This document shows, one piece after another, positions 2,735 through 63,752 of a DNA stretch of 64,000 nt; positions within the stretch are counted from its first letter, which is position 1; each line of letters opens with the position of its first letter. Below the pieces are notes generated by a model. That model saw nothing but the letters and a program-made list of their open reading frames with translations, ran no database searches and was not told the origin of the DNA. Made by a program: the position numbers and the translations under genes. The stretch is taken from positions 6,451,652 to 6,515,651 of the forward strand of contig CM041196.1 of assembly GCA_023078555.1 (NCBI GenBank), given 5' to 3'. This DNA comes from Ulva prolifera. Lineage: Eukaryota; Chlorophyta; Ulvophyceae; Ulvales; Ulvaceae.

Positions 2735-4106
2735 CTAGAGCTCATTGTTGGGCACATGCGTACGCATATCTGCAGAGGCCTCTATGCGGCGCCCCACATC
2801 GGGAACTGTGAGCTGAACTGTGCCACTGGGGCTGCTGCCAACTGCGCCACCTTGCAGCTCTTGCTGCTGCCCCGCACTGTCGACGTCACCGCCCGCGCCC
2901 TCCGCTCCACCATGCTCATGCAGCAGCTCGATGACCCACCACGCCCTGTGGAGCAGCGACGTCCGGACCCCGAGCATGTACGCCACCACCACCGCCGGCG
3001 CCGCCACGAGCGCCTGCACGCACTGCAGCCACGCCTGCGCTATCCACGAGGCCATGATCGACTTGCTCCAGGCCGAGTACTCGCGGCCCCAGCTGCCGGC
3101 GCCGATGGTGTGGCTGCGCCAGCCGCCGCCGCACTGCCACATTGCGGCCTCGCAGATGCATGCCGCGCTCTGGCGGTGGTCGATCGGGAGGCGCCAGAGG
3201 CAAGAGGGTGAGCCTGGAGGGCGCCACACGCGGAGGAATGTGCGGGGCAGGGAGTCTTCAGTTGGCCACGCGAGTTCGAATGGGGTCGGGTCATACTCCA
3301 GGACACCCGCCACACACTCTGCACCTAGCGTCGCGTCAAGTGCAGATACGGCTCTCACTCAGGACGCCAAACCGCTACATGCGGCTCGCCCATTCGTTGG
3401 TTGCTATTAGTGTTGAACTGCCTCAATTGCAGGAATTACATTGCTGCAATTCAGACAAACAGGCAGCAAGGAAGGCGCCCCGTGCAAAAGTGCAGGTATC
3501 CGGTCAAGGCAAAACAGTCAAGGCAAAACAGGACCTGATTACATGGAACATTTATATGTGATTTATATAGGCCCCACGTCGACGATCCCGCTGCGCTGCG
3601 AGGCCCCACGTCGACGATCCCGCTGCGCATTGACTCTCGCCCGTGAGCAGCGAGGGGGCCCGGCGAGCAGGGACATGAGGGGCGCCGCGGCTGCAGCTGT
3701 GAGAACCTCTCTCGAAGCAGAGCGTACCTCGGTACTCTGCATAGCATGCCGATTTCCCGGCGCTGTGGCGGACATTCGTCACCACGTGGAGCACCACCAG
3801 CACAGCCAGGAGGGTGGCAGGGATGGCAAGCAGCAGGCAGGCGGGCCATGACGGCCGCAGGCGCCGGCGCATCGAGGCAGCGCTGCTCCACGGAGATTTC
3901 CACATGCTGGGTTTGGGGCTCTGGCGTGCAAGAGACTCTTCGCCGTCGGGTGGACTTACATCGGCAGGAACCCCGCCAAGAGGGGGCTCGACAGTGGTGG
4001 TGCTTGACATGCTGGTCTGCACACCGTGGAGCTGCATTGTGCAGCAGGTGAACTGTGAGGATGCTGTGATGCAGGAGTGGCACTCGCCCTGTTGAAAAGA
4101 CGACAT
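2735..4106 (-). CDS. A-type two-helix loop protein M6 (family member)
   Basis: Predicted two exons: 4106-3728 and 3318-2735 (320 residues). Exon 1 encodes a polar N-terminal tail without signal peptide and helix 1 (LLLAIPATLLAVLVVLHVVT), then SACYAEYR; the donor GTACGC falls after the first base of the next codon. Exon 2 begins ECVAGVLEYDPTPFELAWP, continues with PRTFL and a CICEAAMWQC cysteine group, then helix 2 (VQALVAAPAVVVAYMLGVRT) and a short tail to the stop. The closest relatives are M3 and P3. The loop between the helices is probably extracytoplasmic, by analogy with sequons in the B-type and M4 loops. It lies about 0.3 kb downstream of M5, as A-type genes do in each complete cassette. 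Start is uncertain: an internal Met at MSSTTTVEPP is an alternative. No known family recognised. Confidence 0.7.
3569..3630. repeat. 32-bp tandem duplication in the M6 intron
   Basis: The unit AGGCCCCACGTCGACGATCC plus CGCTGCGC occurs twice in direct tandem inside the single M6 intron. It shows no coding or regulatory meaning. Confidence 0.8.
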
Positions 4107-4414
4107 TTGGCAAGGGATTAATGGGCTCTAGATCTGAGCCCACAGCCCGAGCGGATCCACACAGACACCCAGCAGTGCCTGGTTGTTGTTGTGAGATTCC
4201 GGCACCAGGACAATCGAGGCTCCCAGCACAAGGAATCCAAGACAATTCTAGACTGAGACAATTCTCTACGCTGGCCCTGCAAGCCACTGGCATGCTGCAG
4301 AGATCTGGCCCAAGCTTGAGACAGGTTGTGGGATTCAGGCCATCGTACAGGCCGCCTGCTGGAGGGGGCGTCAGCCATGCCCTCAAACTGGCAACGAGGC
4401 CGGTGTACCGAAGA

Positions 4415-6673
4415 CTACAATGAGCAGATGCAGACCTCGCCTGACGCTTCCTCCAAGAGAGCTTGCTTTGAGAGAGCAAGCGGCCGCTGGTAGGGTCGCA
4501 TGCACCTCACCGTCAGGCGGTGGCATGGCACAAACAACAGCAGCACCACCACAGCGTACGCCCAGCCGAGGCCGAGCTGTACCCGCCTGGCAACTTGAAT
4601 CTTGTGGCATACTGCACGGCAAAGTGGTTGCTCATGATCAGAGGCGTGGCGATTACACAGGAGTGAGTGGGTCCAGACAAATGTGGCACGGTCACTGAGA
4701 GATCGCCCAAGGGCATATATTCCACATGCACTTTACTGTGCTTTACACAAAGGGCATATGCTTGGCCCCCACTGAGGAGCAGCGGCCCATTCCCCCAATC
4801 CCATGGTACATCCTGTAGTGGTGTGCGATGCATAAACAGATAGATCCCCACGATGGGGTACCACAGCCTACATTGAAAAACAATGCTTGATGCGTTTCTA
4901 CATAAATAAACCGTGCAGCTCTGAGATGATGCTGACCTGATGCAAGTGTGTAGCATGTATGCTCAGCTTATCGGCAAGCCCTCCTGAATGATTCCAATGC
5001 AAACTTGCAGATGATGTGATTTCTCATATGAGAGAGCGCATGCATGGGAGGCGGTGAGCAGTTGACCGACAGGGAGCACGGGAGTGACAGCCGCGCCCGG
5101 AAAAGCTGCCGCAGATTCGTGCCGGCACGAACCTGGGATTGCCGGGATATGGAATCGCGTCGCCTCGCAGGATTCGAGCTGCCAGGCGCCTAGAGGCCGG
5201 ACAAATATGAGCAGGCTAGAAGAGTAGGCAAGACTGGACAGCAGCACCACGGGAAGTGTGGTGCCCAGCAGCAGGTCCCGCGCTGCCGTCCTCTGCTGCG
5301 GGCTCCAGCTCGGCCACTGCGCAAACACCGGCACGCCGGCGCGCGCGGCCACATCCGTAGCGGCATGCATGGCGCGTATGCGCCAAGCAGGAGCTTCTGC
5401 ACCAGCATCGGAGGCTGCTTCATGTGGGCCGGGGGAGAGCGCATCGTCCACAGCTCGCGGCGTGAATACGTACGCATGCAGCCCGCGCAGCACGCCGCCC
5501 AGCACGCCGCACAGCGCGGTCAAGGCCGCGCAGAGCTGCGGAAGGAACGGCACTGCGAGGAGGATGCAGGCAAAGACTGTACATGGTACTACAGTGATTC
5601 CTGCGACCGTGAACAACGCCTCAGTTGCTGCCGCGGAGGTGGCCCTGTGTGTGCGCCACTCCTGCTCGGATTCTGCCGGCTTGTATGCGCATTGAAGCAT
5701 GTCGTCCATGCATTGAACGGCTGCGGCGGGGCACTGGGTGCGGTATCTCAGGTCTTCTGTGCATGCTGAGGTGTTGAGAAAGCCGAGGGGAAAGTCGGCA
5801 GGTACGGCGCCCTCGTACGGCCACTGCAGCTCCACCGCACTGACGCCACCTGCCGCAGCGCAGCCTGCATGCATGTACATGCATGGGCAGATGCGTTTGG
5901 CGTCCTGGCGCATGAGCTGGATCATGGACGCATCTCACACCCGGCTTCGGGCCATGAATTGACCAATCATCTGGCGAGCTGGCAATACAACAATCACAAC
6001 GGACCGATACTGTCAGCTGCTTGTACGTGCACTGATCACTTGCTCTTAGTCAGCGGACTGAACACAAGGCGGCGCTGGTAAGGCCATGCGTATGCGGTCC
6101 GTGTTCGAAACATGTTGACAACCCACCGGCGCCGCAGTTTTCGTTGCACTGTTGTACAACCAGAACCAGGGTGGTGGGCCTTGACAGCGCGCCAAGCGCC
6201 GGCCGCTCTGAGCGAGAGTCTGTGCTGTGAGGCAAACCTCAAACACACACAAACGTGTGAAGCATTGTTCAGAGAAACTCGTGATGTGCATGTGTGTGGA
6301 GATTGCGAGTGGAGTGAAACTGCCAGCATTGACGTGTGCAAGCCACGGCAGGCACAGCTGCGGCGTCGGTGTTCACACCGCGATAGGACTCGTAGCAGTC
6401 GTGGTTGACGGCGGCCTGCGCCCCGCGTGCGGCCGCGGCGGCCCGCATCGCAAGTACAGTCGTGGCGGCGGGAAACGCCATCAGCACTAGCACGAGAATC
6501 ACTCGCGGCGCCGGCTCAAGCGCCACCTCCAGAACCGCAGACGCGCCGTCCGACCACATGCATTGGCTGACCCGGTGGCGGCCACGTGAGTGCTGCAGCA
6601 GAGGTATTCTCGCAGTCGGGCTGCCTGCGCCGTCGGTGTGGAGACCCTCCGGGCTGCTGTCGTGCTCGGCCTT
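4415..6673 (-). CDS. B-type four-helix loop protein M5 (family member)
   Basis: Predicted exons 6673-6379, 5864-5133 and 4611-4415 (407 residues; an upstream start exon is not identified). Exon 6673-6379 encodes SPTARIPLL, helix 1 (VILVLVLMAFPAATTVLA) and NHDCYESYR. The next exon encodes GCAAAGGVSAVELQWPYEGA, FPLGFLNTSAC with an N-glycosylation sequon, MDDMLQCAYKPAES, helix 2 and helix 3 (LLLGTTLPVVLLSSLAYSSS). The last exon, 197 bp, has no Met: VCHKIQVARRVQLGLGW, helix 4 (AYAVVVLLLFVPC) and the end SLKQ-like tail EEASGEVCICSL, stop. It is the same length as the last exon of M2. All junctions are phase 1. It lies about 0.4 kb after M4 and 0.3 kb before M6. Function unknown. Confidence 0.72.
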
Positions 6674-7115: not shown

Positions 7116-8351
7116 TCAGCTGCAGAACAGCACCTCAGCCATGATGCCCACAGCCTCCTTGCAAGGCATGCACTCCGCCGTTCCTGCAGCTGTGAGCTCC
7201 TCAAGCGGCTCCTGGCTTTCGTGTGCATGCTGCGCTGCGGCGGTGCGGCGGTAGTGGTGGAGGATGGCCAGGAGGGCCTGCGCAGCACCCAGCATGCACG
7301 CCATGAAGAAGCAGACGCATGCCGCATGGTGCTGGACGGTGGAGCTCTTGGGCGTGAAATAGCAGACGGTCTGATTGCCAAAGACGTCAAAGCGTGGAGT
7401 GGACTGGCCTCCCCATGCATGCCCTGCAGGCACAGCTGACATCAGCATGTGGGTGAACTCGAGGTATCTATCTGTCTGTTGTGAAGTGTATATACGACAG
7501 ATGTGCATCAGCTTCGAACTTCAAAGAACAGAATAGCGATATCATGTAATTTCATGCTGCTATGCAATTTCATGCTGCTATTTGGCAAGGCGCCAATGGA
7601 TTTGCACCGAAATCCGCATACAAATGCAATGTAGCTGTCTGTGACCTCCACTGGACCTGTGGTGTGCCCAGGTAGATTCCTCTCGCGGATGGTACCTACG
7701 ATGGGATTTCTGCCAGGCTAGACAGTGCCTGGTGAGACAATTGACCACCTCAGCCACGCAGTACAGGTGCACGCTACAGCGACATCTTCCAGAGGTCGTA
7801 GACATGAAGCGTTATAAGTTGCATAAGGTTGGATTACATACAATGGACGGATCCCATGCGGAGTGTTGCGGCTTGTGGTGCAAACGGCGTGACCGTATCA
7901 GCTGAAGTGATCCCTAACTGGGTCACACACTTTTCTATCCGCACGCGGCCCAGTTGCAAATCGCACCATAATAGTCACTACACTTGCATGCTTCTGCTCG
8001 TCTATGAGCCATGCGCTCCAGCACCACAGCGGAGCACAGCAAAGAACATGGCAGCGCAATGAGGAGCACTTGAAGCAGTAGTCGCGATGTCAGGCATCTG
8101 CCGACAACAGCCTTCGTCATCATGCTGGTGACCCCTTGATCGCTTTTCGCGGAGCGATCGTCAGAACGGTCTAGGCCTGCAGCTTCACAACCGGAGTCCG
8201 GGCTGCACATGTCGCGGCCATTGGCAGCGGCATCCACCTTGCCGTCATCATTCGCAACAGCAGGTGTTGAATCATTCAGAGGATGCTCCACTGCCTTGCT
8301 CGTACACGACAAGTGCACACCGACAGTGCAGCTGTCGTCTGGGCGCCTCAT
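7116..8351 (-). CDS. T2-type two-helix loop protein M4 (family member)
   Basis: Predicted exons 8351-7967 and 7423-7116 (230 residues). Exon 1 carries an acidic and polar N-terminal tail of about 90 residues, helix 1 (LLLQVLLIALPCSLLCSAVV) and EACKCSDYYG with the donor GTGCGA. Exon 2 encodes HAWGGQSTPRFDVFGNQTVC with a sequon and a cysteine, CYFTPKSS, helix 2 (AACVCFFMACMLGAAQALLA) and a tail with EPLEELTAAG. It pairs with P1 and P4 by exon structure, phase and residues. It opens the second minus-strand cassette. No known domain recognised. Confidence 0.7.
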
Positions 8352-12469: not shown

Positions 12470-12500
12470 CAAGGCACACACCTGCACCGCGATATCCCGC

Positions 12501-14050
12501 TCACCTCACACCACCGACTCCTCGGCGGTCACATCTACGGACTTTCAGGGTCTCCGAGTGCACGAGCTGCTGTCCTGCTGCTCCGTCTTCACAGTCATCC
12601 AGATGCATCACCGCCCAGCACGCCCGCCTTGGCAAGGATGTCTGCATCCCGATGATGTACGCCACCGTGGCAGCCGGCGCGGCCAGCACGGCCAGCACAA
12701 GCTGCAGCCATGCCTGCCAGATCCATGAAGAGAAGATGAATTCGCGCCACACAGGCGTGTAGTCTCCTCTTGCACACTGCAACATGCCGGCCTCACATGG
12801 GCACGCCGCGTATGGCTCGAGCGGTTGGCCTGCGTACGAGTACCACTGAGACCTCCAGCGTGGGTCAGTGCACCTCACGAAGGACGACTCTGGGTCCGGC
12901 CGCCAGATGTCAAGGAAGGTGCGTGGGACGGACGCCTCGGTCGGCCACAAGAGAGACGCCGCCGTGGGGTCATACTCCGAGATGCCTGCCACACACTCTG
13001 CACACGATGCATTTAAATTTGTTTTGATCAAGCACCCAACATGGTCCTGTGTTGGATGGTGTGGAGGCAGGTGTGTGGAATCAATGAGTGCTTGCGGATT
13101 CTGTTGCAGTCAGATGCAGAAACGATAGCGCTGCACTGAATGCACATCATGATGGCAGCAGCTTGGAGCTTGTCTTGAGGTCCTAGACTGCAGCAGTGAC
13201 CGGGCTCGCTGCGTCTGGATCACTGCAGTGAATCTCTGGACATCTACTCTCTGGATGGCACTCCCAAAACTGTTGCAATGCAATACAAGCCTGGGCCTGG
13301 TGCCTGGACGGCCGGGAACAACTTTCTGCTCATGCATATGGCTTCGTGTGGCTTCACGTTGACTCAGCACCGCATGGGAATCGGCAGCTTGACAACTTTG
13401 AAGTGGCGCAAGTGATGCCCGCCGCTCGCTAGAAACGTGTGCCGCGCATATTATTACACAGAGCGGCACCGTGATGTGCACATGTCGGGAACCAAATTGC
13501 CAGGAATCAACCTATTGTTGTACTCTCAATTTTTGGGGGACTGCACACTGCCAGGCTGTTCACAAGACTGCAACCTGTTGACTGCATAGTAGCTGTGGTG
13601 GAGCATACCACGGTATTCAGCGTAGCAAGCCCCCTTGCCGGCGCTGTGGCCGACCTCTGTCACTACATGTAGAACCACCACCACAGCCAGCACAGCAGCA
13701 GGGACGGCAAGAAGTAGACACGCCAGCCTGCCACTAAACCTCCGCTGCAGCTTGCGTGCATCGTGCATGCAGCTGACGCAAGTCTTGCGGACCATGTCAG
13801 CGGCTCTTGAGCTTGGGGCCAAGCTCGGGGCAGAGGCCGAGCCGGAGCCCTCACGCCTGCAGACATCCGGCGAAGCTGCTGCTGTGGATGCTCTGTCAGC
13901 GCTGCATCTGGCAACAGCCTCATCTGCCAGTGCATGCTCTTTCTTCAGGGCCTCTGTCGCATCCATGTTAACAACGTTGGGTAGGCATGCATGTGCCCCG
14001 CTACTGGACTCTTCAATGGCGTCTGCGGTGGGCTGCGTGGACGTCTGCAC
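12501..14050 (-). CDS. A-type two-helix loop protein M3 (family member)
   Basis: Predicted exons 14050-13609 and 12997-12501 (312 residues). Exon 1: a long polar tail beginning MQTSTQPTADAIEESSSG, a basic stretch KLQRRFSGR, helix 1 (LLLAVPAAVLAVVVVLHVVT) and GACYAEYR, donor GTATGC. Exon 2: ECVAGISEYDPTAASLLWP, SVPRTFLDIW, ACPCEAGMLQC, helix 2 (LVLAVLAAPAATVAYIIGMQ) and a tail ending GVGGVR, stop. Sequence and intron phase match M6 and P3. It follows M2 by about 0.8 kb and closes the first minus-strand cassette. No known family recognised. Confidence 0.72.
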
Positions 14051-14820: not shown

Positions 14821-17183
14821 TCATACACGAGAGCACACCTGAGGCCCTGAGGGCATGGCTGAAACGGCTCGCTGGGCACGGCTGAGCGGGTCCTTGTAAA
14901 TCTTCAAGGCGCGCCGCAGCGCCCAGGCCAACGGCAACGCCAGAAGCAGCGTCGTCGCCACCACGAGCACCGCAATGCGTTGCTGGGTGTCACTGACACT
15001 CTGCAGCTTGCGGCACGCTGCAAGAAGCAGTAGCGCTGGCTCAAAATGCTGGCAACACGTGGGGACACGCATACAGAGACATCAGCATGGTCCATTGCTG
15101 CATGTATGGTGATGAATTGGGCTTCACGGCCCCAACCCACGTGAGCCCCAGAGCACATGTGCAGAAACCTGACCCATCCCCACAGCATCACCTTCGGGTC
15201 AAAACATAATGTATGCATGGCCACGACAAGGACGAATGTCGACTCTGTAAGCAGTGTCAGCAACACACATGATCGTATCAGCATCATAGGGCTCCTGCCC
15301 TCCCTGCACGCCCCTATGTATGAGCAGCGAGGCAGCCACCTCAGGCTGGATCAAACACAAGGACCGGCCGGCCCTCACCGCTGCTACACCAGCAGGTGCG
15401 TGCCTGAACCACCGTGTGACATGTCTTTCAAACTGTGTGTATGCATCACATCGCGCACACTTCTATGTATGGTGATGGCGCACCTTCTTGCCCGCACGTG
15501 CATGTGTAGCATTCATATGTGCACCCGGGCCCACGGCTTTCGTGAGGCGGACGGGACCTCCCGTCGAGCCAGCCGCGAGGCGCTGTGCACACCTGCAACG
15601 GCCAGCTGGAGGCCCCGACGGCCACACAGGCACACAGCAGCAGTGATGACCCCACGAGCATCGGCAGCAGGGCGGCGGGGAGCGCGGCCCCCAGCAGCAG
15701 CTCTCCCGCCGCCCGCCGCTGCTTCACGCTCCACATGCACCAGCACGCACGCACGCGCCGCGCCGCGCGCTGCGCCGCATCCCAAGCAGCCCGCCCAGCA
15801 CCAGTCCAGCCTTGGCCGCTGCGGGTGTTGGATTCACCAGAGTGTGCAGGAGTGGCATCCAAGTGCACACTTTCAGGTTGCCCGCGCATCCACATGCATA
15901 TGCAGGCGTACACCCCCCCCAGCACCCCACACGTGTACGGCACAGCAGACAGCATGGACGGCACCTGAAGTACTTTTGGCAGAATATTCATGCGCACGCC
16001 AAGCACCTCCCCCACCGTGCCGCACATGATGCCGTTCATTGCGCCAGACAGCACATATATCGGCATACGGAGCCTCTGTAGCCACGGTGCCGCCACCAGC
16101 GCGCTGGCGAGCGCTACGCACGGAAAAAGGCAGGAGGTCGCCAGTAGCCACAAGACATCGATATTCCTCACTGACCGGATCACCTGTTCCTCCCATTCGC
16201 GGTAGGATGCCGGTGCGTGGGCACACTCTGCTGCAGCATGAGTGCACTGAACCTCGGCTTCTGGACAGGCATCCGCGCCGCCATATGCATGGTCGGATGC
16301 GCTGGGCGACAACACTTCACTGCAGGCCGTCGTATTGTGGAAGTTGACAGGGAAATGTCGGGGTAGGGCGCCTTCAAAGGGCCACTGTAGCTGCACTGCA
16401 CTCACATTGCCGGCGGCCGAACACTCTGCAGAAGGCACGTATACGTATCTTTGCAGCGAGAAGTGCAGCCATTAATTATGTGTTGGTAACATAGGCACTG
16501 TGCACGTACTACACGTACAGCAAGCGACTTCACCTCTTGGCACAGCCCAACACATGTTTCTGAGTGCTCGTCAGCGACGAGGATGTCATCGGGCATGTGC
16601 ACACTGGCGGACATGGCCCTCGTACCAATACGTGTGCACATGTGCTGAAGAACCCCCTCACGAGGTGATCATGGCGGTACCGGTGCTGCTACATGTATGT
16701 GATGCACTCTGATGAAAGTCGCAGCCAAACCAGGACACCAGCTCCACCGGCCGGTGGGGCATTATAACATTGTCAGCCTGGACCATACTGTCAGCCTGGA
16801 CACGTCCTCAAACCACGCAATTGTGACTGACAAGCCCAGGCAGCCGGCAGCACACCTCGGTACGCTTGATAGCAGCCATGCACCACAGCCTGCTGGGAGG
16901 TGATTGCACTGGACTCAGCGTGACGGGCCAATGCAAACATGGTCAGAGGGAGCACCATGGCCAGCACAAGCAGAGCACGGCTGACGGGGCGGCGAAACCA
17001 ATGCCGAGCCATGTCTGCAGTCACCCACATGCTGCGTCCCTCTAAGCTCCGAGTCCATGGCTGAGTCAGGAGCGGTTGCAAATGCGCATGTCCATGGTAC
17101 GGGGCCCCACGCACGAACTCATCTCCTGCATCTCGGAAGTCAGCCTGGACGTCGGCATGTGCATCGCCCGCCTGATCCTCCTC
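14821..17183 (-). CDS. B-type four-helix loop protein M2 (family member)
   Basis: Predicted exons 17183-16856, 16425-15484 and 15017-14821 (488 residues; an upstream start exon is likely and not identified). Exon A holds helix 1 (ALLVLAMVLPLTMFALA) and VHGCYQAYR. Exon B reads ECSAAGNVSAVQLQWPFEGA, FHNTTACSEV with a sequon, VQCTHAAAECAHAP, helix 2, a long central region with basic residues and helix 3 (LLLGAALPAALLPMLVGSS). The 3' limit of exon B is the least certain point. The 197-bp last exon encodes ACRKLQSVSDTQQRIAVLVV, helix 4 and a tail to TGA, and matches M5 in length and phase. It follows M1 and precedes M3. Confidence 0.7.
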
Positions 17184-17685
17184 CTGCAAGGAACGGGTGC
17201 GTGGGTGATGGTTGCGGTGCTCTGCGGGCGATATCCATTCAAGACGACAGTGCATGCTCCGTGTTTGTGTGTATGTCTCACGGCCTTGACCCTATACTTG
17301 GCATTGCACTGACAGTGGTCTCAGTGGCTAGCAGTGCACTGTTTTGGAACGCACATGTGGACTGCAGTGCATCCCCATTCTAGATTGAGCAGACGCACGC
17401 TGCAAACCGGACTGCAGTTCGTGGGGGAAAAAAAAGCGCACAGCTGCGTATATATGTATGCGCTCACGAGGAACGGGCAGGTACTGCAGGGATGAAGCCA
17501 ACAAGACACAATCTCAGACACAGCGTGATGTGTGTATGCCCGCAAAAACCGTAGCAGCACTGCCGTGACTCTGCCGATTCGGAATCGGCACCATGCCTGA
17601 ACGCACGGATCCACGCACCACGACATGTTCCTGGGTGACCCACTGACGAGCTTGTAATGGACGTAGACTACATGTCCAATGGGTT

Positions 17686-17975
17686 GAGGACGGATTGAAA
17701 GCTACCCCCTCCGTTTCAGGAGGTCGTGGGTTTGATTCTGCGTGCGCTTTGGGAATCGAAACGCGAAACGCGGCCGCGGCCGTACGTGACCATCTCGCTT
17801 AGCACAGGAGGAGGCCCTGTGAGTTGCGTACGGTCGTCTGAGGGGGGTTTCCAGGTGGTTTACCCCTTCGGCATATGTGGTCCCGTTAATTTGGAGTTGT
17901 CAATGTCCAATAGGAATCCTATTATTGGATACGGCTCAGTAAATTCAGATTTACTTTACTTGAATTTACATGCTG
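17686..17975 (+). repeat. S1 SINE-like repeat, long copy 1
   Basis: Starts GAGGACGGATTGAAAGC, contains a stem-loop CCTCC-GTTTCA-GGAGG, a tRNA-type B box (GGGTTTGATTC) and ends with the tail GGCTCAGTAAATTCAGATTT. It aligns nearly base for base with 43008-43256. The head looks like a pol III promoter but no complete tRNA cloverleaf is present. It lies between M1 and M2. Confidence 0.7.
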
Positions 17976-29362: not shown

Positions 29363-29418
29363 TAAGGGGGTGCCTTTCCACTATCGCGTTTTCGTCCATG
29401 TAGTTACAAAATGGATCC

Positions 29419-50117: not shown

Positions 50118-51919
50118 ATGAGTTCGAGAGCTGCCCACACCCTTCCGGTTCCTCTCGTCCATGACTCTGCGGCCGAGGGTCTACAAGATTCGAACAGGCA
50201 ATCCTGTACAACCATCGTAGGGCTTCGGGTCCGGCTGATCACTTTCAGCGCCCCGTTTTGCCTGCTTTGCTCGGCTGTGGTGCTGGAGTGCATGGCATAC
50301 CTGCGGAGCGCAGCATGCAGCAACGTGTACATCGCAGGTGCGCGTCTACAGCGTGATAGCTACTCCTGCGACCAAACATTGAAGTCGATGTACCGAGATA
50401 GATGCCAGGCGCAATAGGTTCTTAGGGATGTGCACACCGACCTGCAGCATGGGGCTTTCGGCAGTGTGACTCGGCACCGGTACTATAGTACACCAAGCTG
50501 CCCTATACATGTCCAACTAGTAGGTTCACATCTGGAATTGCGTCAATCGATAAAACACCGCTTCAGCTTGCACGTTCCGTCGCAGAAGCGCGCAGTGCTT
50601 ACTGTACACCGACGCCACGGACGTGACTTTGTCCAGCCGCGCACCCAGCTTGACGACGTGCTCGAAGCAACGTGAGCCAGGGCAATGATGTGTGATAACT
50701 TTCTTGGGGAGACGAGTGGCGATCGGACACGGATGTCGATTGATGTGCACCGTCTACATGTTCGAATGTATAGTCGAATTACGTCAGCAGATTGAGCAGT
50801 AAGAGTCATGATTATGGTTGTAGAATGTATGTGATGTCTACTTGATGCTGTGTTTTGAGGGGGCCTTCCTCGCGTTGGTCATGTTCACCACTGTGGAAGT
50901 AGCGACAGCGAGCGCAGCTGCAGCAATGGAGCTACAAATCAACATACCTATGTAGCATATGATGCTGCTAGCCAGAAATGCATTGGCACTCTAGCCATAT
51001 GGCTGATCCAGGACTTCCGCCTGGGAACCATTAATGCAACAGCACCATTCATGGTCAAAGCCTTCCGTTTGCATTTGGCTGGCAGATGCAGGCAAGGCGA
51101 AAGCACAGTAGGTCGTTCTGCATATGTGCCACTACTTTGCTTCCCATACTTCCAATGCCACGCGCCCGAGCAAGACGGTTTCTTGACCTCGAGACGTGCA
51201 TGGGTTTTGCCCAGCTTGGCCAGCTTGCCCAGCTTTTTGCCCGCAACGAACGCTGCCATTTCAGCAACCGGTGATCAGAGCCTGCACCCCTTGGTAATTG
51301 AGATTTCATCCAGGGCGCCATGTTGAACAGCTTTTTCGTGCTATCGGTCGCATGTCGACATGTCAATGCAAACTAGTTCGCAGACAGGCTCATTGTGCAA
51401 ATGTCCTGATGCCAACGGCGCAGTGGTCTTCTCCAGCAGAGGGTCGCCGCGGCGGCAATATTGATGCCATGTGCAAAGGAACTGGCTGCGGCGCGTGCTT
51501 GCCATCTCCATTGCACAACACACCAGTAGACTCAGCATGCGAGACACAGTGATTCCTCATCTGACTACACCACAAAATTATCTGACGACTGGCCACACCA
51601 GGAAGCAGCATGCATACAAGCGGGCCTTTGACATGCAGGCGATGTGTACAGCCACCCTTACGACCTGAGCAGCGACATGTTTGGCAGCTGGTGCTGCTAC
51701 GACATGAAGCGGAGAGACACGGCCCAGCACAAGCTCGCGAGGCTCTGTGTCTACATGGCCGTTGCGGCCGCGCTGGTGTTGGTGGGGCTGTGCTGTCGGC
51801 AGCGCCAGCGTGGCGGGGCCCGACACGTTGTCGAAGCGGCGGGCGCAGGTGGCTGTTGGGCCCCTAGACGATCCTGCGGCAGGGAGGGCGCGAGTGAGCT
51901 GGCAGAGCTGGAGGTGTGA
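50118..51919 (+). CDS. T2-type two-helix loop protein P1 (family member)
   Basis: Predicted exons 50118-50337 and 51639-51919 (166 residues). Exon 1: short polar N-terminus, helix 1 (LITFSAPFCLLCSAVVLECM) and SAACSNVYIA with the donor GTGCGC. Exon 2: GDVYSHPYDLSSDMFGSWCC, then the basic KRRDTAQHKLAR, helix 2 (LCVYMAVAAALVLVGLCC) and a tail ending ASELAELEV, stop. The end resembles GSELADLEV of P4. It opens the first plus-strand cassette. The 1.3-kb intron shows nothing else convincing; an open frame at 50430-50675 was not assigned. Confidence 0.65.
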
Positions 51920-52282: not shown

Positions 52283-53150
<868 letters not shown>

Positions 53151-53457: not shown

Positions 53458-55736
53458 GAGCCCCGAGGCGACGGCCAGCGCACAGCGCGCGCAGCACAGC
53501 GCCCGCGCAGCCCGTCCGTCTCCCCCACAGCACGCCTGCTCGTCAACCAGGGCCACGACGCCCACTTGACCGACGGCATGCGCACCCCCGGCAGCCCCAT
53601 CTTTCGCATCATGCTGGGACTAGCGCTGCTGGCGGCCCCTGTGGCCACTGGCATCGCCGCGGCCCGCGCCGAGGCGGCCGCGCGCGGCCGCCAGGCTATC
53701 GTGAACCACCACTGCTACATGGTGTACAGAGGTGTGCTCGAGTAAGCTGAGTGCATCGCCGACACCGCCTGTGCATGCCGCCGGGGCGTGGCATAATGCA
53801 TGACGCAGTCGGCATCCTCGTCAGCTGGCAATCCTTTTGTGCCGTAACGATTGTACCCATTGGGCGCCTGTAAATTTCCCAGCATTGGGTCTTGTTCCGG
53901 TGCTCTGTCGTATTTCTAGCATGCTTGCATATGGACCAGCTGCTTGAATTGCCGCGCAGCCTCGCCGCAAATGGCGAACACGCGTGCTGCTGTGCAGGGT
54001 GCGCGGCGGAGGCCGGCATGGCAGCCTCGGAGCTCCGATGGCCGTACGAGGGCGCCCTCCACGACGGCTTCCCCTTGGGCTTCGTACCTGTCGAAGAATG
54101 CGCATCCCCGCAGATCAACATCGCCGAGGTGTGCGGCGGCAGCCGCAACATCAGCAGCAGCACCGCCCAGTGCTGCTGCGCGCAGGAGATGCACGACTGC
54201 TCCATCCTGCCCTCGGACAGTGTGGACGCATGGCGCGCCCGCAGCGCGCGCGCCTGGGCCTGGGTCGAGGCCCTCCGCACCGCATTCGCGGCCACCGCCA
54301 TCCCCTGCGCCATGGCCGCATGCATGCTACTCGCCACCGGCCCCCTCCTCGCACGAGTCTTCCCCCGCTGCAGTGCCATGCATGTAGATCATGCGGAGGA
54401 CAAGGGGGGGTGCCACCAGTGGTGGGGGTGCGTTGCGGCGCGTGCGCGGATGTGCGGTGCCTCCGTGTGCGGGGGCGCGGTGCGTGCCGGCCATCGGCTG
54501 GCGGACGCCGCATGCACGCCGTGGCGAGTGTGGAGCAGGGACCAGCGGCAGGACGGCCTGCGGCTGCTGCTGGGGGCGGTGCTGCCGGTGACGCTCACCA
54601 TCGCCGTGATCGTGTCTGCCGTCACGCTGCAGTTCCTCGCCGTTAGCTGCACACATCAGCGCTCGCTCTGCGAGCTCAACCGCATATCTTACAGTAAGTG
54701 GTACAGCAGACATCCAGCTGACGCGGGTGTGCTTCTGTGCTGCTGCTGCTGCTGCTGCCATGCATGCCATGATGCTGCGGAGCACATCTTCGTGCGCGTG
54801 CCGCTGCGTGGTCGACATGTCGACTGCCATGGTTGCACGCATGACCTGTCGAGCATGTGACGCGACTGCCGGCGCCGTTGGTCATGTCTGTCTCACCCAC
54901 AGCACGCCTGCTGGTGGACCCAGACCAGTACGTTTGCTCCACCCCCGGCAAGCAGACCCCATCTGTTTGGTCTGGGGGCATCGTTGCTTTTGGGCAATTG
55001 GCTTCCTGTTTGGGCGTGTTTGTCTGCGCAACAGTCTTGTTGTTTTCACATTCAAGCAGTCTGACCTCGCTCTGCGTGTCTAAAGCATCGCATGGAAGTG
55101 CTATCCCTATGCGAGTCAGCGCTATTATATGCTCATCAGGATGTACTGCAGCTGTGGCTTGGCCTACCTTGGGGAACTTAGAGCTACGTAGCCATAGCCG
55201 CAATCACGTGCTCGGTCTGTGCAGCCTAAGCACATCTGGCTTGTGCAGGTTGCGGCGAGTTCTTCTACTTCTGTGAGCAGAGGGAGGTGCTTGCCGATAA
55301 CCTCCTCATGCCGACGTCCTCGATGGCGTTTCTCTGCTGCGTGCTAGGCACGTGGTGCGTGGGTCCGTTCGTCAAGCGCTTGCACAGCGCACGCGGCACC
55401 ATTCTTGCTCATAACAACCCAGGCGTGGCCGTCGGTGATGAGAGTGCGGTATGCTCTGCTCGCCTGAAGCTTGCCATTTCAGGGCGTGTGTGTGCAAGCG
55501 GCGCAGGAATGATGTCTGCTGGCGTCGTCTGTTGCATAGCGCCGCTTGTCATCTTGCTCTACGTATGTATTTACAAAGGACAGAGGCCGGGCATGCGACC
55601 GGTTCTCGGAATCCATCCTCGAACCTATTCACTCAATCATGGCCCTAGGCCGGGTACGAGCACACACACCGCAGCCCTACCGGCATGTATGTATGTGAAT
55701 ACTTTCTCCCCCGTGATCATTTTGCGCACGCGCTGA
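53458..55736 (+). CDS. B-type four-helix loop protein P2 (family member)
   Basis: Predicted exons 53458-53731, 53998-54693 and 55249-55736 (about 485 residues; an upstream exon or the Met at 53407 supplies the start). Exon A: SPTARLLVNQG, helix 1 (IMLGLALLAAPVATGIA), IVNHHCYMVYR. Exon B: GCAAEAGMAASELRWPYEGA, FPLGFVPVEECASP, a NISSS sequon, CCCAQEMHDCSILPSDSVDA, helix 2, and helix 3 (LLLGAVLPVTLTIAVIVSAV); donor GTAAGT. Exon C: SCGEFFYFCEQREVLADNLL and helix 4, WCVGPFVKRL. Exon A is 274 bp, the same as in P5. From 55563 the frame runs into a LINE-like repeat, so the native end is probably lost or earlier; a donor-like GTATGC at 55449 is an alternative. Confidence 0.68.
55563..55680 (-). repeat. 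LINE-like 3' end, second copy, in the P2 3' end
   Basis: TTTACAAAGGACAGAGGCCG, AATCATGGCCCTAGGCCGGG and TACGAGCACAC match 52118-52222. It overlaps the last part of the P2 open frame. Confidence 0.65.
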
Positions 55737-56018: not shown

Positions 56019-57667
56019 ATGCAGGAACCACCCGATGCACAGCAGGAACAGCAGGCACCTGCTCCACCTGAGCCTGAACCCACGGCAGCAGATGTAGCCG
56101 ATCAAGTCAGCTCACCAGCTAGCTGCGGTGACGGGCCCCATTCCTCCACCGACGAGACCGTGCCAGCTCCCTGGAGCTCACGTAGCGTATGGTGGAGCAC
56201 CGCCAGCGACCTGCGCAGACGGACCGCGGTCGTGGCGGCTTGCGTGCAGCTGCACTTGCGGCGGTGTGTGGCTGCGTGGCTGCCGCTAGGCGCCGCTGCG
56301 GCTGTGCTGGCGGTGGCGCTGCTGCTGAACGTGGTCACCACCGCGCGGGAGGCTTCGGTGACTGGGCCCTGCTACAAGGAGTACCGCGGTGCGTTTGCCT
56401 AGGCCTGCACGCCGCTTGAGTCGCAATTGCTCTTCAGTGAGGCGTGTACCGTGGTGGAAAGACAGCACTGCCATGGTGCACCTGGCTGACAACTATGGCT
56501 GATGTTTTCTGGCTGAAGTTGGCAAGAAGTTCAGTGACGAATCCTGTTGATCTGATGTTGGTGCTGACGCTGCCGCGGGGCAGTTATCACTTCAAGAGCG
56601 TTGGCTTGTACATCTCGCAGCTGTGCACCGTTCGACCAGCACCATCGCAGAAGCCTGTTTGGAATTTGTAGAGGCTCAGGCAAGCGGTCCCTGTTCTTGC
56701 CTTTTCTGAGAGCAGCACGCATGCCCACCAGCATGCCTGCCACCTGGCCGCTCTACGCTGCATTGCCACTGCTTTGGATTATCTTGGAGTAGGTCTGCAT
56801 CGCACTCGAGCTCGCAGAGAGCATGCCAGTGGCCGCAGCAGACCCTAGCATCTGACCTGAGCACAGCTCACATGGCACTCCTGTCGTATAACCACTCGCA
56901 ATTCTGTCAAACATTCAGAATCACCAATGCAAGTTTGGGCCGTCGTCCACGGCCACCGCTGCGTCGCACTCCAGCTGTACTTGCACATTTAAGGTACTGA
57001 CGTTTCTAGGTTCTTGCCGCTAGGCTGATGTTGGGAGTTTGCTTCACACGCGGTGTCCGGATCATGTATGAGACTGCTGCAGTTGCTTTTGTTGCCCCGG
57101 GCGCGATCACCGTGGCGGTGATTCAGATACAACTCGGTGACTCCCTGCACGCATCCACCAGTGACAGGTCGACTTGCGTCATTTTCAGGGCTGCCATCGT
57201 GAAATCAGACCTGACAATTCGGAGTTGTTGCAAATGATTGGGGCTCGCCAGTGTTGGCATGCAAATGCGTACATCGCTACTGCTGTGGTGCAGGGTGTGT
57301 GGCGGGCATACATGACTACGACCCCTTGCACGCCGTCGCCTTGCACTGGCCGAACCAGGCCTCCCTACCCAAGACCCTCGCCTGGGGGGACATCGACCCC
57401 CACTACCTCCCGCCCGGCCCCCCCGAGGACGTGACCCGCGTCTGCAGAGACCAGCTGCTGCTCTGCGCGAGGAAAGGGAGATGGTTCCGGCGGTCCGTCC
57501 GGGCGGCCTGGAGGTGGCAGGCGTGGCTACAGGCGGTCGCGGCGGTGCTGTTGGGGCCGGGGGTGGCTGTGGCGTACATGCTGGGGGTGCGGACGTCGTT
57601 GCTGGGCACAGCGTTGTGGGTGATCGAGCACGATCTTTCACCCCTGTCGCAGCAGTTGCCGGCGTAG
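56019..57667 (+). CDS. A-type two-helix loop protein P3 (family member)
   Basis: Predicted exons 56019-56388 and 57294-57667 (247 residues). The Met at MQEPPDAQQEQQAPAPPEPE was chosen because it matches the polar start of M3; an upstream Met at 55905 is in frame. Exon 1 has an acidic and proline-rich tail, helix 1 (LGAAAAVLAVALLLNVVTT) and GPCYKEYR, donor GTGCGT. Exon 2: GCVAGIHDYDPLHAVALHWP, SLPKTL, CRDQLLLCARKG, helix 2 (AVAAVLLGPGVAVAYMLGVR) and SLLGTALWVIEHDLSPLSQQ to the stop. A diverged MITE (57158-57256) lies just before the acceptor. It follows P2 by about 0.3 kb. Confidence 0.72.
57158..57256 (+). mobile_element. hAT-like MITE, copy 5 (diverged), in the P3 intron
   Basis: CAGTGACAGGTCGACTTGCG, CAGGGCTGCCATCGTGAAAT and CAATTCGGAGTTGTTGC follow the family consensus. 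Flanks GCATCCAC and GCATGCAA match at 6 of 8. Confidence 0.6.
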
Positions 57668-59365: not shown

Positions 59366-61234
59366 GTGGATAAAATCGCGCGAAGGCATGTAGCTGACGC
59401 TGAGATGCGCGTGAGATCCCGAGCTGGGACGCCTGCAGCTGCAGGCAACGATCCGGCTCCTGGTCATGGTGGCCCTGCCGAGACTCCGGGCAGAACGACG
59501 CAAAGAAGTTTGAAGATGCATCACTTTGTTTTGATCGGGCTGGCCGCTGTCTGTGCCAGTGTCTGCTTTTCAATCTCCGCTGCATCGTTGAGAGGTGTAG
59601 CATATCATCGGGCCGCAGAGTGCAGCCCCTTTTACATTTCAGGTGTGATACAGTACCATGCGTCTGAAGCTGTGTATGAAGTCTACACATGTTACCGAGG
59701 GTCGGGGAGCCATGCGGTCGTGAAAGTGCTTCCGATCTCTGTACAGTAATTCAATTGCTCGGTTCCACTTCCGCCACCACTGAGTGTCCCAGCTCACACA
59801 ATTACCGTTTTTCACAGCGAAGTTGGGACCATTCATACAATTGCGGCAGATGTAAAAGAATCGCTGGCGTCCGGGCATGCTTGATGCCATACCGAAGCAG
59901 ATGTCCTCTCCGCAGTTGATCAGCAAGTTTCCGCGATGAAGTCACGACACGCTGCAAATCATATTCCTGACCATCATCCGCAGTCATGTTTGTCCACTAC
60001 GGGAAGTCGCCGGATCCTCGTTTGCGTTGTCCAGGACCACATCTGCATTCACACACCTGAGGTCGGGGCGTCGGGTCGGGGCAGGGCAGGTGCAGCGAGC
60101 ATCAAGTCGACGACAGAGCTAGGGACATCCATTGGATTCCAATTGTTTGTTGCACTGGACCTGTCGTGGTCACAGTCCCAGAACTCTCGCGCGTGACTTG
60201 TCTTGTGGGCAGTAACAGTTGTCCAGTGTGCAAGCATCGTTCACAGAGCCGCCTGAAGTATGTGCAGCTAGGCTACGTCATGAAAATGCTTGTTATCTAC
60301 AGACTGTTATGAGATAGTCTGGCAAACATACTCTGTCGAGATGAATGTGCGTGAGCCTGGACATCTTTGCTTAGTGTCCGATGTACCAACCCACAGGACT
60401 GCTGCTGTGATGATGCCAATCTCGGCGGTAATTCGCGCTCCAATGATGTGGTAAACGATCACTCGCGAAGGCATCTTCGGCATCAGAGAGATGAACAACT
60501 ATGCCAGTGAGCTAGATAGGAAAAGGAAGACACAGGTCATGACTCATGAGCGCTGCATTTGGCAGCTGGTGACCTCAGCGACCAGGCATCCTGAGCTCCC
60601 TTGCATCGGCACACATGCTTTCGGTAAGAACATGTTCTCTCTGCAAGTCCACACTCCGCCGTAAAGTGCTCAACCACAGCAATGAGGCCATGGCAAAGCC
60701 ACTGGAGCAGTTCTGCATGCTTGTGATCAGCACATGTAATATACACAACAGCAGTCAGTCATGCTCTATTTGCATCATCTTGTAGCATTGCAAGGCGCAA
60801 GTAGCAGTAGCAGTTGTGGTATGGCATGAGTACAACACGTTACACAGATGCAGAAACCCCTCCTGTCCGCAGGAAGAATTTGGACTAATCATTTTGAATG
60901 GAAGTATGATAAGGGGAACCGATGGCAGTGCTACTACTTGGACCGCAGGAAGACAGCTCAGTACCGGGCGGCCAGCGTCTGCATCTTTGCGGCATTTGCG
61001 GCGCTGCCGCTGGCGCTGGCAGTTTGCAGATGGCAATACCTGTTGAGTGGCACCCGCCAGACTCCGGGCCACGGAGGCCAGGTGAACGCGATGAATACCT
61101 TCTCAGGCTGTCCAGACGGTAGTGAGCTAGAAGGTAGTGAGTTGGCAGATCTGGAGGTACTGCTGCCGTCTCTGCATGTATTCATGGTGACAAGCAAATG
61201 CGTAACACAACAATGCACGCTGCTCAATGAATGA
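59366..61234 (+). CDS. T2-type two-helix loop protein P4 (family member)
   Basis: Predicted exons 59366-59642 and 60873-61234 (212 residues). Exon 1: polar tail with GTPAAAGNDPAPGHGGPAET, helix 1 (FVLIGLAAVCASVCFSISAA) and AAECSPFYIS with donor GTGTGA. Exon 2: GRIWTNHFEWKYDKGNRWQC, CYYLDRRKTAQYRAASV, helix 2 (CIFAAFAALPLALAVCRW) and a tail with GSELADLEV. Cys and aromatic positions match P1 and M4. It opens the second plus-strand cassette. Confidence 0.68.
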
Positions 61235-61473
61235 TGTGTGTCAGCATGTGGTGCCGCCGGCAGAGCGCGTGGCACCCGGACACACAGCTGTGTGAACACT
61301 GAAGTATCTCCGTGCTCCAAATCTATCACATGCGAACAACACGTCAATGCGGGCCCCAGCGTGAGTTCCCGTGTGGTGCATCGCCAACAACCATGTCTTC
61401 GCTGGGTGACCCAGCCTTGCCGCACCTGCTTCAATACCATCGCGAGCACATCGGCTAGCTAGCAATCGCAGAG

Positions 61474-63752
61474 ATGCAGAGGAACGGCACGTGCTGTCAT
61501 GTCGCCCGTTGTTGCACATATTGCTGCGCTCCTGCTTGTGTGAGTAGGCCTACATGCACATACAGCTTCCCTGCAGGCGCCACAAGCTGCGGGTCAGCGC
61601 ACAGCGCGCACAGCACAGCGCTCACGCAGCCCGTCCGCCTCCCCCACAGCACGCCTGCTGGCCGGCCAAGGCCGCGACCCTCGCCCGGTGCTGGGACTGC
61701 AGTCGCTGCGGAGCCACCGCATACGGATCGCGCTGGCCGTAGCGCTGCTGGCGTTCCCTGTAGCCACGAGCATCGCCGCAGCGCGCACCGAGGCGGCCGT
61801 ACGAGGCGCCCAGGCTGCTGTGAACCACAACTGCTACGTGGAGTACAGAGGTGTGCTTCTGCGAGCTGCACCAGTCGGCGGGCTTGGGCATCGGTCCGTT
61901 GTGATACGATAGTATATTGTGACAGCCCGGCATGTCTACATCACTTCACCAATTCGCACAAGTTCGATAGAGCAGCCGGTGTGATGTCGGGGCCCGTGTA
62001 CGATACTTTTTGGCGCGGCAAGGTGATCCAGCTCGCAGCCTGACATCGAAGCAATTCTGATTAGTATTCAGTGATTACCCCAGCGTGAATCCAAGGCCTG
62101 AAACTGCCCCCCACCCGGCGAGGACTCTTGCCGAGGAGCACAGAATTCCCACATGTCGTCAGAGATATGTGCAGGGTGTGCAGCCAAGGCAAAATTGAGC
62201 GCCGCGGACCTGCAGTGGCCGTCTGAGATGTCCCTCGCCGGCGTCTTCCCCCTGGGCTTCCAGCCCCCTGCACACTGCTCGACTCTGGTGCCAACCGCCT
62301 TTGACCTCCGCTCGTGTGACACCGCCAGCGCCCCCAGCTGCTGCTGCTCACAGGTTATGCTCGACTGCGCCATCCGGCCCTCAGAGAATGTGTACGCGTG
62401 GCGGGACGGCCGCGCGCACGCGCTTGCCTGGGCTCAAGTCCTCTGGGCAGTGGCTGCGGCGGCCGCGGTGCCCTGCGCCGTGGCCGCCGGGGTGCTCCTC
62501 GCTCCCGGCCTTGTGGCCAAGGCGCTGCACTGCGCCTACCGGGCGGTGGCGGTGGCCACTGCGCCGCTGCGGCGCTACAGCGAGGAGCAGCAGCGGGACG
62601 GCGCGCAGCTGCTGCTGGGCGTCGTGCTGCCGCTCGCGCTGCTGCTCGCGGTGGCTGTGTCTGCACTTGCGTTGCAGTGGGCCGCACATCACCGCTTACA
62701 GGTGTGGCAGCGGTGCGTCGACAAGGACCGGCATGCGGGCGGCCGGGGTGCGGGTATGCTTCATCGCTGCTCTTCTGTGTACTTGCGCTGCTGCGCATGC
62801 TGCCGTATGCGGCGAATATCCGTCAACGTTCATATGCTCTTCTGCTGCTGCTCGCACATGCATGAGCGCAGTGGCCACACACCTCATGTTTCCCGAATGA
62901 CCCTCAGCCGGGCGTAGCTGCTGCCAGTGCCTGTTCTCAGGCCCGGTGGATGCTTCACCAATGCGTCCCCAGCACTGCTTTGATCGATCAGTGGGGCATT
63001 GTATCCTTGTGCGCGCAGACGCATGATACACTGCCGTTCGATGCACACCACGCTTCGTGATCGCCTGATTTTCGATGCTGCAAATACAGGCGTGCAGACC
63101 CTCGTCGAGCTGAAAGATGCCGAAGTCTGGTGCCACTCGATGGTGCACGCATGAACGGCACGGCCAGTCGTCTCCCTTGGCCGGGCTCGTGTCCTTGTGT
63201 GCGGCAACCGGCATCATGATACGTGAGTATACACGGGCGCTGTCGACTCCACAGTGTGGAGGAGGTCGTAAGTGATGTGTAATTGCGAATTTCTGTGCAG
63301 GCTGCAGTGTTATGACCTTTGGAAGTGATCTAGAGCGGCATACAGCAAACTTCCTCATGACGGCAGCGTTCTTCATCGCAATCCCGTGCTGTGCTGTGGC
63401 CACGTGGTGCGCAGACCCGTTTGTGAAGCGCCTCCGCGGAGCCGCTGCCGCCATCCTTGCCCAAGACGCCGGCGGCACGGATATCCCCATCGATGCATCG
63501 AGTGCCACCGTGGATCAGCCGGTGTGCTTTCCTTGCTCCAGGCATCGCTGGAAGTACTGCACGAGGTGGCCGCACATGCATGCATACACACTGGCCAAGC
63601 GTGGACACATGCTGGGGGGGGAAGGGGCACATCCAGGAAGGGATCACTGCACGATCCAGGTGTCCATGCAGCACATCATGCTATCATGCATGGACCCCTG
63701 CAGTTTGCAGCAGTATGGCCCAAGCGCCCTGGCAATATGGCAAGCAGGGTAG
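61474..63752 (+). CDS. B-type four-helix loop protein P5 (family member)
   Basis: Predicted exons 61577-61850, 62175-62753 and 63301-63752, with a possible start exon 61474-61539 (MQRNGTCCHVARCC; the intron would be only 37 bp). Exon A: GQRTARTAQRSRSPSASPTA, helix 1 (IALAVALLAFPVATSIAA), VNHNCYVEYR. Exon B: GCAAKAKLSAADLQWPSEMS, FPLGFQPPAHCSTL, SCCCSQVMLDCAIRPSENVY, helix 2 and helix 3 (LLLGVVLPLALLLAVAVSAL); donor GTATGC. Exon C: GCSVMTFGSDLERHTANFLM and helix 4, WCADPFVKRLRG. The 3' end is uncertain: the frame continues to 63752, with a donor-like GTGTGC at 63522. The A-type partner expected next would lie beyond the window. Confidence 0.68.

What the first reader, a model, noticed from the sequence alone, without database searches (positions are those of the whole stretch)
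2735..63752. A three-gene membrane-protein cassette (T2-B-A) present four times
Eleven genes fall into three types by exon structure and residues. In transcription order they run T2-B-A (M1-M2-M3), T2-B-A (M4-M5-M6), T2-B-A (P1-P2-P3), T2-B (P4-P5, cut by the window). Gaps inside a cassette are mostly 0.3-1 kb. Keeping three diverged paralogues together through duplications suggests that their products work together, for example as a hetero-oligomeric receptor, channel or recognition complex. I recognise no described family with this arrangement; novelty is an inference.
Basis: partly seen in the sequence, partly recalled or inferred. Interest (0 to 1): 0.92.

Follow-up and report, generated by a model that had tools for sequence, protein, structure and literature searches.

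The report
Eight-pass membrane protein gene, six copies
What looked like three neighbouring membrane-protein genes kept in the same order is most likely one gene, copied six times along one chromosome of a green alga, for a membrane protein of no recognised family that seems to cross the membrane eight times and to be a doubled four-pass unit.

Summary
The exons and their T2-B-A order are real, and two further sets with the same order lie left of the window: six sets on one chromosome. Single-exon searches of the genome found no other set except on a near-identical redundant contig. The three "genes" are most likely parts of one gene. Joining T2, B and A by two phase-0 GT-AG introns gives four complete seven-exon models (two in the window), 800-1001 aa, no internal stops, intron phases 1-0-1-1-0-1 in each. 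A splice matrix trained only on the 22 introns inside the parts puts the best donor after T2 or B in phase 0 in 11 of 11 tails scanned, and the best acceptor before B or A in 9 of 11. The gaps have intron length; one B part has no ATG. Hydropathy gives eight membrane segments; the long loops hold even cysteine numbers. The first half aligns with the second end to end: a duplicated four-pass unit. No Pfam match was better than E 0.01 and no PDB match than 0.14. There was no RNA; the sixth copy's A part would fall in a 6.3 kb run of N; structure models were poor; the function (disulfide-stapled scaffold or receptor) is inferred.

The parts
7967..8351 (-). c3 gene, exon 1 (T2: N-tail, TM1, first cysteines of loop E1)
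   Evidence: phase-1 donor GTGCGA
7134..7423 (-). c3 gene, exon 2 (T2: loop E1, TM2, cytosolic linker)
   Evidence: phase-0 donor GAG|GTGCTG
6379..6673 (-). c3 gene, exon 3 (B: linker, TM3, CYESYR)
   Evidence: acceptor GTGCAG, phase 0
5133..5864 (-). c3 gene, exon 4 (B: long loop E2, TM4, linker, TM5)
4436..4611 (-). c3 gene, exon 5 (B: loop E3, TM6)
   Evidence: phase-0 donor GAG|GTCTGC
3728..4016 (-). c3 gene, exon 6 (A: linker, TM7, CYAEYR)
2735..3318 (-). c3 gene, exon 7 (A: long loop E4, TM8, C-tail)
18348..18823 (-). c4 gene, exon 2 (T2 part; exon 1 not found, second E1 cysteine absent)
   Evidence: phase-0 donor GAG|GTGCGG
16856..17183 (-). c4 gene, exon 3 (B)
15484..16425 (-). c4 gene, exon 4 (B: E2, TM4, TM5)
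14839..15017 (-). c4 gene, exon 5 (B: E3, TM6)
13609..14044 (-). c4 gene, exon 6 (A: TM7)
   Evidence: the best-scoring acceptor in this stretch is another site, not in phase 0
12501..12997 (-). c4 gene, exon 7 (A: E4, TM8)
50118..50337 (+). c5 gene, exon 1 (T2)
51639..51913 (+). c5 gene, exon 2 (T2)
   Evidence: the relative P0008 is 86% identical
53458..53731 (+). c5 gene, exon 3 (B)
53998..54693 (+). c5 gene, exon 4 (B: E2, TM4, TM5)
   Evidence: relative P0001 differs at 3 of 231 residues in the exon against 4 of 80 in flanking read-through
55249..55448 (+). c5 gene, exon 5 (B: E3, TM6)
56025..56388 (+). c5 gene, exon 6 (A: TM7); another phase-0 acceptor at 56250 scores higher
57294..57667 (+). 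c5 gene, exon 7 (A: E4, TM8)
59405..59642 (+). c6 gene, exon 1 (T2)
60873..61156 (+). c6 gene, exon 2 (T2); donor placed by homology, a better-scoring phase-0 donor lies at 61082
61577..61850 (+). c6 gene, exon 3 (B); no ATG in the open frame before TM3
62175..62753 (+). c6 gene, exon 4 (B: E2, TM4, TM5)
63301..63521 (+). c6 gene, exon 5 (B: E3, TM6), ending at a phase-0 donor CCG|GTGTGC; no next exon is seen up to 64000, after which the sequence reads N

Best explanation
Each T2-B-A run is one nuclear gene of seven exons that encodes one eight-pass membrane protein (N- and C-terminus inside): T2 supplies TM1-TM2 with short loop E1, B supplies TM3-TM4 with long loop E2 and TM5-TM6 with short loop E3, A supplies TM7-TM8 with long loop E4. 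The protein is an internal duplication of a four-pass unit (short-loop hairpin plus long-loop hairpin), which is why B looks like an A joined to something T2-like. Six copies, in two old classes (c1,c3,c4 and c2,c5,c6), sit on one chromosome of a green alga. Proposed working, inferred only: the disulfide-stapled loops E2 and E4 form a rigid extracellular or lumenal face that binds a constant partner, and the eight helices serve as a scaffold or receptor platform, somewhat as tetraspanins do; long variable linkers face the cytosol. Shown by computation: exons, order, copy number, compatible phases, even cysteine counts, and the repeat for the long-loop hairpins. Inferred: splicing across T2-B and B-A, topology, membrane location, function.
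For: (1) Four complete models without internal stops, all introns GT-AG, phases 1,0,1,1,0,1 in 4 of 4; the two partial copies fit as far as they go. (2) Matrix trained on the 22 phase-1 introns only: the best donor in the read-through tails after T2 and B is in phase 0 in 11 of 11 tails scanned (M1's was not scanned) and is the chosen site in 10; the best acceptor before TM3 of B and TM7 of A is in phase 0 in 9 of 11 and is the chosen site in 7. For independent sites chance would be 5.6e-6 and 0.0014; paralogues are not independent. (3) T2 tails share E|GT in 6 of 6 and B tails |GTNTGC in 6 of 6 (GTGTGC in 4), and diverge after it. (4) The T2-B and B-A intervals have intron length (p = 0.50); gaps inside sets (10 measured, 114-1487 bp) are all shorter than the four between sets on one strand (1737-6393 bp). 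(5) B of c6 has no ATG in its frame. In relative P0004 the upstream B frame of c3 is shifted and the only Met of c3 exon 3 before TM3 is changed (M117T) (by reading). (6) Local profile alignment of half 1 with half 2 runs from TM1 to the end, 298 columns, E 1.5e-13, score 101.6 against 92.7 for the long-loop hairpins alone; the intron pattern is itself 1-0-1 / 1-0-1. (7) Eight hydrophobic segments in c1, c2, c3, c5 (two overlapping peaks counted as one in c1 and c5); long loops hold an even number of Cys in 11 of 11, 29 of 32 TM cores hold Pro, 5 of 32 a charged residue.
Against: No transcript was available. The training introns and the joins were placed by hand (donors chosen to fit the acceptor's phase). 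Predicted sites are weak in places: B of c2 has no good phase-0 acceptor (-2.8 for the chosen site; the best site is not in phase 0), B of c1 3.7, T2 of c6 and of c3 have weak donors (2.9, 4.1), and in A of c4 a site outside phase 0 scores higher. The relative P0007 of the c3 T2 exon ends eight residues before the predicted donor, which could be a stop there, harmless to separate genes. A-tail donors, meant as a negative control, were also consistent (best in phase 2 in 5 of 5, scores 0.6-10.4), so either the method over-reads or a further 3' exon exists. For c3 exon 3 the relatives show no excess conservation over the read-through (6 of 128 against 1 of 36; 13 of 140 against 1 of 36). The T2-like half of the repeat is not significant alone (T2 against the second half of B: E 0.07). 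Short loops hold an odd number of cysteines in 4 of 11. Function has no direct evidence.
Confidence: 0.78

Rival explanations
1. Three separate neighbouring genes: T2 (2 TM), B (4 TM) and A (2 TM), duplicated as a block and co-regulated, their products forming a hetero-oligomer.
For: Each part has its own stop, and an in-frame ATG upstream exists in 15 of 16 models; relative P0007 may be truncated before the predicted donor; concordant deep split in the separate A and B trees.
Against: Phase-0 donors (11 of 11) and mostly phase-0 acceptors (9 of 11) at matching places, intron-sized gaps, no ATG in B of c6, upstream B frame shifted in a relative, and an end-to-end half-to-half alignment once the parts are joined.
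Confidence: 0.15
2. One polycistronic mRNA with three ORFs, a mode known from green algae and explained there by leaky scanning.
For: Short gaps, 4 of 10 under 200 bp; polycistronic nuclear mRNAs occur in green algae (PMC11291117, passages seen).
Against: In that paper leaky scanning is limited by start sites upstream of the second ORF; the five T2 models hold 7-22 extra ATGs against 6.8-16.8 expected and the six B models 13-38 against 13.8-28.6: no depletion. Does not explain the phase-0 splice sites.
Confidence: 0.04
3. The protein is an ion channel or transporter built as a pseudo-dimer of two four-pass units, not a scaffold.
For: Internal duplication of four-helix units and a proline in 29 of 32 TM cores are also seen in channels and transporters (general knowledge).
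Against: Only 5 of 32 TM cores hold a charged residue; no Pfam or PDB transport family matches convincingly; among relatives the loops change least.
Confidence: 0.2
4. A diversifying surface recognition family (allorecognition or immunity) with variable ectodomains.
For: Array with two old classes, a B-type relative P0003 whose best match here is only 55% (66 of 119 residues, to the B of c5), a broken A copy to the left.
Against: In five of the eight relatives, those with loop sequence and a clear counterpart, the loops are more conserved than the rest (6 of 281 against 29 of 509 residues changed, p = 0.019); dN is below dS in all eight paralogue pairs tested, loops included, wherever dS could be computed.
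Confidence: 0.08

Closest known systems
Tetraspanins (Pfam PF00335), by topology of one four-pass unit
   Same: Four helices, short first loop, long cysteine-rich second loop with even cysteine number, ends inside (topology here from hydropathy; the family's traits from recall)
   Different: Two units fused in one chain; no CCG in any of 22 loops; cysteines in the short loop; no Pfam match at E <= 1
Claudin / PMP-22 / MP20 superfamily (PF13903)
   Same: Four-pass, one long loop with W and a late Cys pair; a single sub-threshold match, E 0.01, 16.1 bits against a cut-off of 29.1, in 1 of 6 B proteins
   Different: No GLW in any of 22 loops, loop order short-long, two units per chain, no match of the joined proteins
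Polycistronic nuclear loci of green algae (PMC11291117, passages seen)
   Same: Coding parts with small spacers, always in one order
   Different: Here the spacers carry phase-0 splice sites and upstream ATGs are not depleted

Membership tests
Tetraspanin | Match to the family profile | tested here: not met
   No Tetraspanin hit at E <= 1 in 6 B, 5 A, 5 T2 and 4 joined proteins
Tetraspanin | CCG motif in the large loop (recalled) | tested here: not met
   Absent from all 22 loops examined
Tetraspanin | Four TM, small then large loop, N and C inside (recalled) | tested here: inconclusive
   Hydropathy only; each half fits but the joined chain has eight TM
Claudin superfamily | Profile match above cut-off | tested here: not met
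   16.1 bits against 29.1, 1 of 6 B; no match in the genome at E <= 1 with PF13903, exon by exon
Claudin superfamily | W-GLW-C-C signature in loop 1 (recalled) | tested here: not met
   No GLW in any of 22 loops
Polycistronic locus read by leaky scanning | Few ATG triplets before the downstream ORF | tested here: not met
   No depletion in T2 or B models
Polycistronic locus read by leaky scanning | One mature mRNA with several ORFs | not testable with these tools
   No RNA data at hand
Single seven-exon gene (this report) | Compatible splice sites joining T2, B and A without stops | tested here: met
   4 of 4 complete copies, 2 of 2 partial ones as far as they go; best site in phase 0 for 11 of 11 donors and 9 of 11 acceptors
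Single seven-exon gene (this report) | Spliced mRNA across T2-B and B-A | not testable with these tools
   No RNA data at hand

The most novel reading that the evidence does not exclude
A previously undescribed superfamily of double-tetraspan proteins: eight-pass, disulfide-stapled surface proteins born by fusion of two copies of a four-pass (short loop, long loop) unit, restricted to one green-algal lineage and kept as six copies in two ancient classes, acting as a self-contained pseudo-dimeric scaffold or receptor.
Probability: 0.5. Interest if true: 0.6.

Novelty: new variant of a known kind. Interest (0 to 1): 0.5.

Why it matters
It replaces a three-gene heteromer story by one orphan gene family with a readable origin: the intron pattern 1-0-1 / 1-0-1 and the half-to-half alignment point to a duplication of a four-pass membrane unit. 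It also warns that open frames with their own stop and upstream ATG can make the exons of one multi-pass membrane protein look like a gene cassette in an intron-rich algal genome. If confirmed, it gives algal cell biologists a small, well defined family to test by knock-out and localisation.

Tried and rejected
Three-gene cassette with hetero-oligomer: set aside after the splice test. Leaky-scanning polycistron: rejected on ATG counts. TGTAA as poly(A) signal to tell gene ends: not enriched after the 16 model stops, uninformative. Claudin or tetraspanin membership: not met. Two AlphaFold models of exon pieces (c3 exon 4 and c4 exon 7; pLDDT 49.5 and 55.5, pTM 0.27 and 0.30) are too poor for a fold search, which I did not run. 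Scans of viral contigs (B profile) and of prokaryote genomes (A profile) found no relative. The broken A copy left of the window keeps an acceptor-like AG before the exon, so it is no processed copy that could prove the transcript. Exon 1 of M1 was sought by profile and by splice matrix and not found. Naming the alga failed (paper searches, listings only); a chlorophyll a/b-binding protein fits a green alga by recall. Paper searches for an earlier description (listings and abstract starts only) showed nothing fitting; three listings are no proof of absence. Searches looked for polycistronic loci; PMC11291117 was seen as passages, not read whole.
Full report
SETTING. The window is C1:6451652-6515651 of an 88.9 Mb, 44-contig eukaryote genome. 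A chlorophyll a/b-binding protein read from it has the make-up of green-lineage LHCII, by recall. I name the sets from left to right c1, c2 (left of the window), c3 (M4-M6), c4 (M1-M3), c5 (P1-P3) and c6 (P4-P5).

OBSERVATION. In 244 kb the same profile finds 6 B, 5 A and one broken A; a T2 profile finds 6 exons; first-exon profiles find 11 A/B and 5 T2 exons, with M1 missing. Order is T2-B-A in c1-c5 and T2-B in c6. Whole-genome searches with one B, one A and one T2 exon give nothing else at E < 0.05 except contig C25, whose first 10 kb are 99.5% identical to window 53025-42993 and hold both exons of the T2 of c5 at 100%. Single-exon searches are of limited reach: the T2 query found only 4 of the 6 T2 copies known here, two of them at E about 0.1.

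ANATOMY OF THE PARTS. B has three exons, A two, T2 two; introns inside the parts are GT-AG and phase 1; the acceptors set the phase and the donors were chosen by hand to fit. In A and B they interrupt the codon before a cysteine codon, after CYxxYR in the long loop; in T2 they follow C...G. A and B are homologous (hhalign E 3.2e-13; 6.4e-15 for the blocks); T2 is not detectably related alone (0.07 against the second half of B). In eight paralogue pairs third codon positions differ most over the whole models and dN is below dS wherever dS could be computed (separate-gene models). The separate A and B trees share the split {c2,c5(c6)} | {c1,c3,c4} with support 97-100; inside the second class they disagree (A pairs c3 with c4, B pairs c3 with c1), the T2 tree leaves c2 unplaced, and the joint A+B tree supports these splits at 25-95 only.

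WHY ONE GENE. T2 open frames share a tail ending ...E|V, where E|V is GAG|GT, and then diverge; B frames share x|VC, where that is |GTNTGC, the donor type of the other introns. The B frame of c6 has no ATG. I therefore trained a splice matrix on the 22 phase-1 introns only and scanned the tails after T2 and B (11; M1's was left out) and the heads before the first TM of B and A (11). The best donor is in phase 0 in 11 of 11 and is the chosen one in 10; the best acceptor is in phase 0 in 9 of 11 and is the chosen one in 7. Exceptions: B of c2 (best site not in phase 0, no good phase-0 site), A of c4 (best site not in phase 0, the phase-0 site second), T2 of c6 (another phase-0 donor scores higher), B of c1 and A of c5 (another phase-0 acceptor scores higher). 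Controls: best acceptors before T2 are out of phase 0 in 5 of 5 and mixed; donors in the A tail are best in phase 2 in 5 of 5, with scores 0.6 to 10.4. In c1 and c4 such a donor overlaps the stop codon. So a short further 3' exon is possible in some copies; no conserved peptide was found after A (best E 0.006, between c3 and c5). Joined, c1, c2, c3 and c5 give 905, 1001, 916 and 800 residues without stops, phases 1,0,1,1,0,1 in each; c4 (lacking exon 1) and c6 (cut) fit as far as they go. The 11 phase-0 intervals are 282-1544 bp, the 22 phase-1 introns 231-1301 bp (p = 0.50); the four gaps between neighbouring sets on one strand are 1737-6393 bp while the ten gaps measured inside sets are 114-1487 bp (separate-gene models; c4 and c5 lie head to head about 31 kb apart).

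VARIANTS. Three searches found eight exon-level relatives in unnamed public contigs, strains or sister species (in each only 8000 candidates were scored). At least P0001, P0002, P0004 and P0005 read through introns, so they are genomic. P0001 differs from c5 exon 4 at 3 of 231 residues and at 4 of 80 in the flanking read-through; P0002 from c3 exon 4 at 15 of 234 (one of these is its start codon) and 6 of 13. For c3 exon 3 the contrast is absent: 6 of 128 against 1 of 36, and 13 of 140 against 1 of 36, counted over the long separate-gene exon. P0004 is in another frame upstream of the predicted acceptor and has lost the only Met of exon 3 before TM3 (by reading). P0008 matches the T2 exon of c5 at 86%. 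P0007 ends eight residues before the predicted c3 donor: a stop there would speak against the joined gene in that strain, or mark a null allele. P0005 and P0007 are both listed with a longest contig of 5357 bases, so they may share one contig. In the five relatives with loop sequence and a clear counterpart here, loops change less than the rest (6 of 281 against 29 of 509, p = 0.019); P0003, P0004 and P0005 were not in that count.

THE PROTEIN. Hydropathy gives eight segments in c1, c2, c3 and c5 after merging two overlapping peaks in c1 and c5; c4 lacks TM1 and shows one extra hydrophobic stretch; c6 shows six. Long loops E2 and E4 hold 4-8 cysteines, an even number in 11 of 11; short loops hold 2-7, odd in 4 of 11 (loop borders set by hand). 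Local alignment of half 1 (T2 plus the first hairpin of B, five copies) with half 2 (the second hairpin of B plus A, five copies) covers 298 columns from the first to the last helix, E 1.5e-13, score 101.6. Most of the score comes from the long-loop hairpins (92.7 alone), but the alignment extends without being forced through the T2 part. The intron pattern repeats as 1-0-1 / 1-0-1. Hence a duplicated four-pass unit.

KNOWN FAMILIES. No Pfam match of these proteins is better than E 0.01, and that one is below its cut-off. PDB sequence searches with the B, A and joined profiles gave no convincing match (none; best E 0.14; best E 0.33). No relative was confirmed in viral contigs or prokaryote genomes. 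Tetraspanin and claudin marks fail. The two structure models have pLDDT 49.5 and 55.5 and say nothing.

FUNCTION. Inferred only. Even cysteine counts in the long loops and loops that change little suggest an oxidising, outer or lumenal side with a constant partner; few charges in the helices speak for a scaffold or receptor more than a transporter. I give the scaffold or receptor reading about 0.4 and a channel or transporter 0.2.

Noticed in passing
window 29404-29925 (+) and 42129-42824 (+): Two PLAC8-family coding stretches (E 1.3e-9, above the cut-off; 4.6e-5, below it) between c4 and c5.
   Followed up: partly
window 36444-37287: Tandem array of a 183-base unit, 4.6 copies, 92% matches, with open frames on both strands.
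   Followed up: no
window 52286-53134: About 425 copies of TG; under the one-gene reading it lies inside the second intron of c5.
   Followed up: no
G000:C25 (25,140 bases), locus L050: Redundant contig, 99.5% identical to window 53025-42993 over its first 10 kb; only that part was compared.
   Followed up: partly
within -50220 to -49906 (-) and about -33616 to -33545 (+), window coordinates, left of the window: Two complementary pieces of an A-type exon 7 on opposite strands, about 16 kb apart: perhaps a copy broken by a rearrangement.
   Followed up: partly
window coordinates 64001-70333: A run of 6,333 N directly after the window, where the last exons of c6 would lie.
   Followed up: no
window 30556-30816 against 33965-34357; 17647-18049 against 42945-43444: Repeats of 76-94% amino-acid identity in six-frame translation, the first pair inverted, perhaps mobile-element remains.
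   Followed up: no
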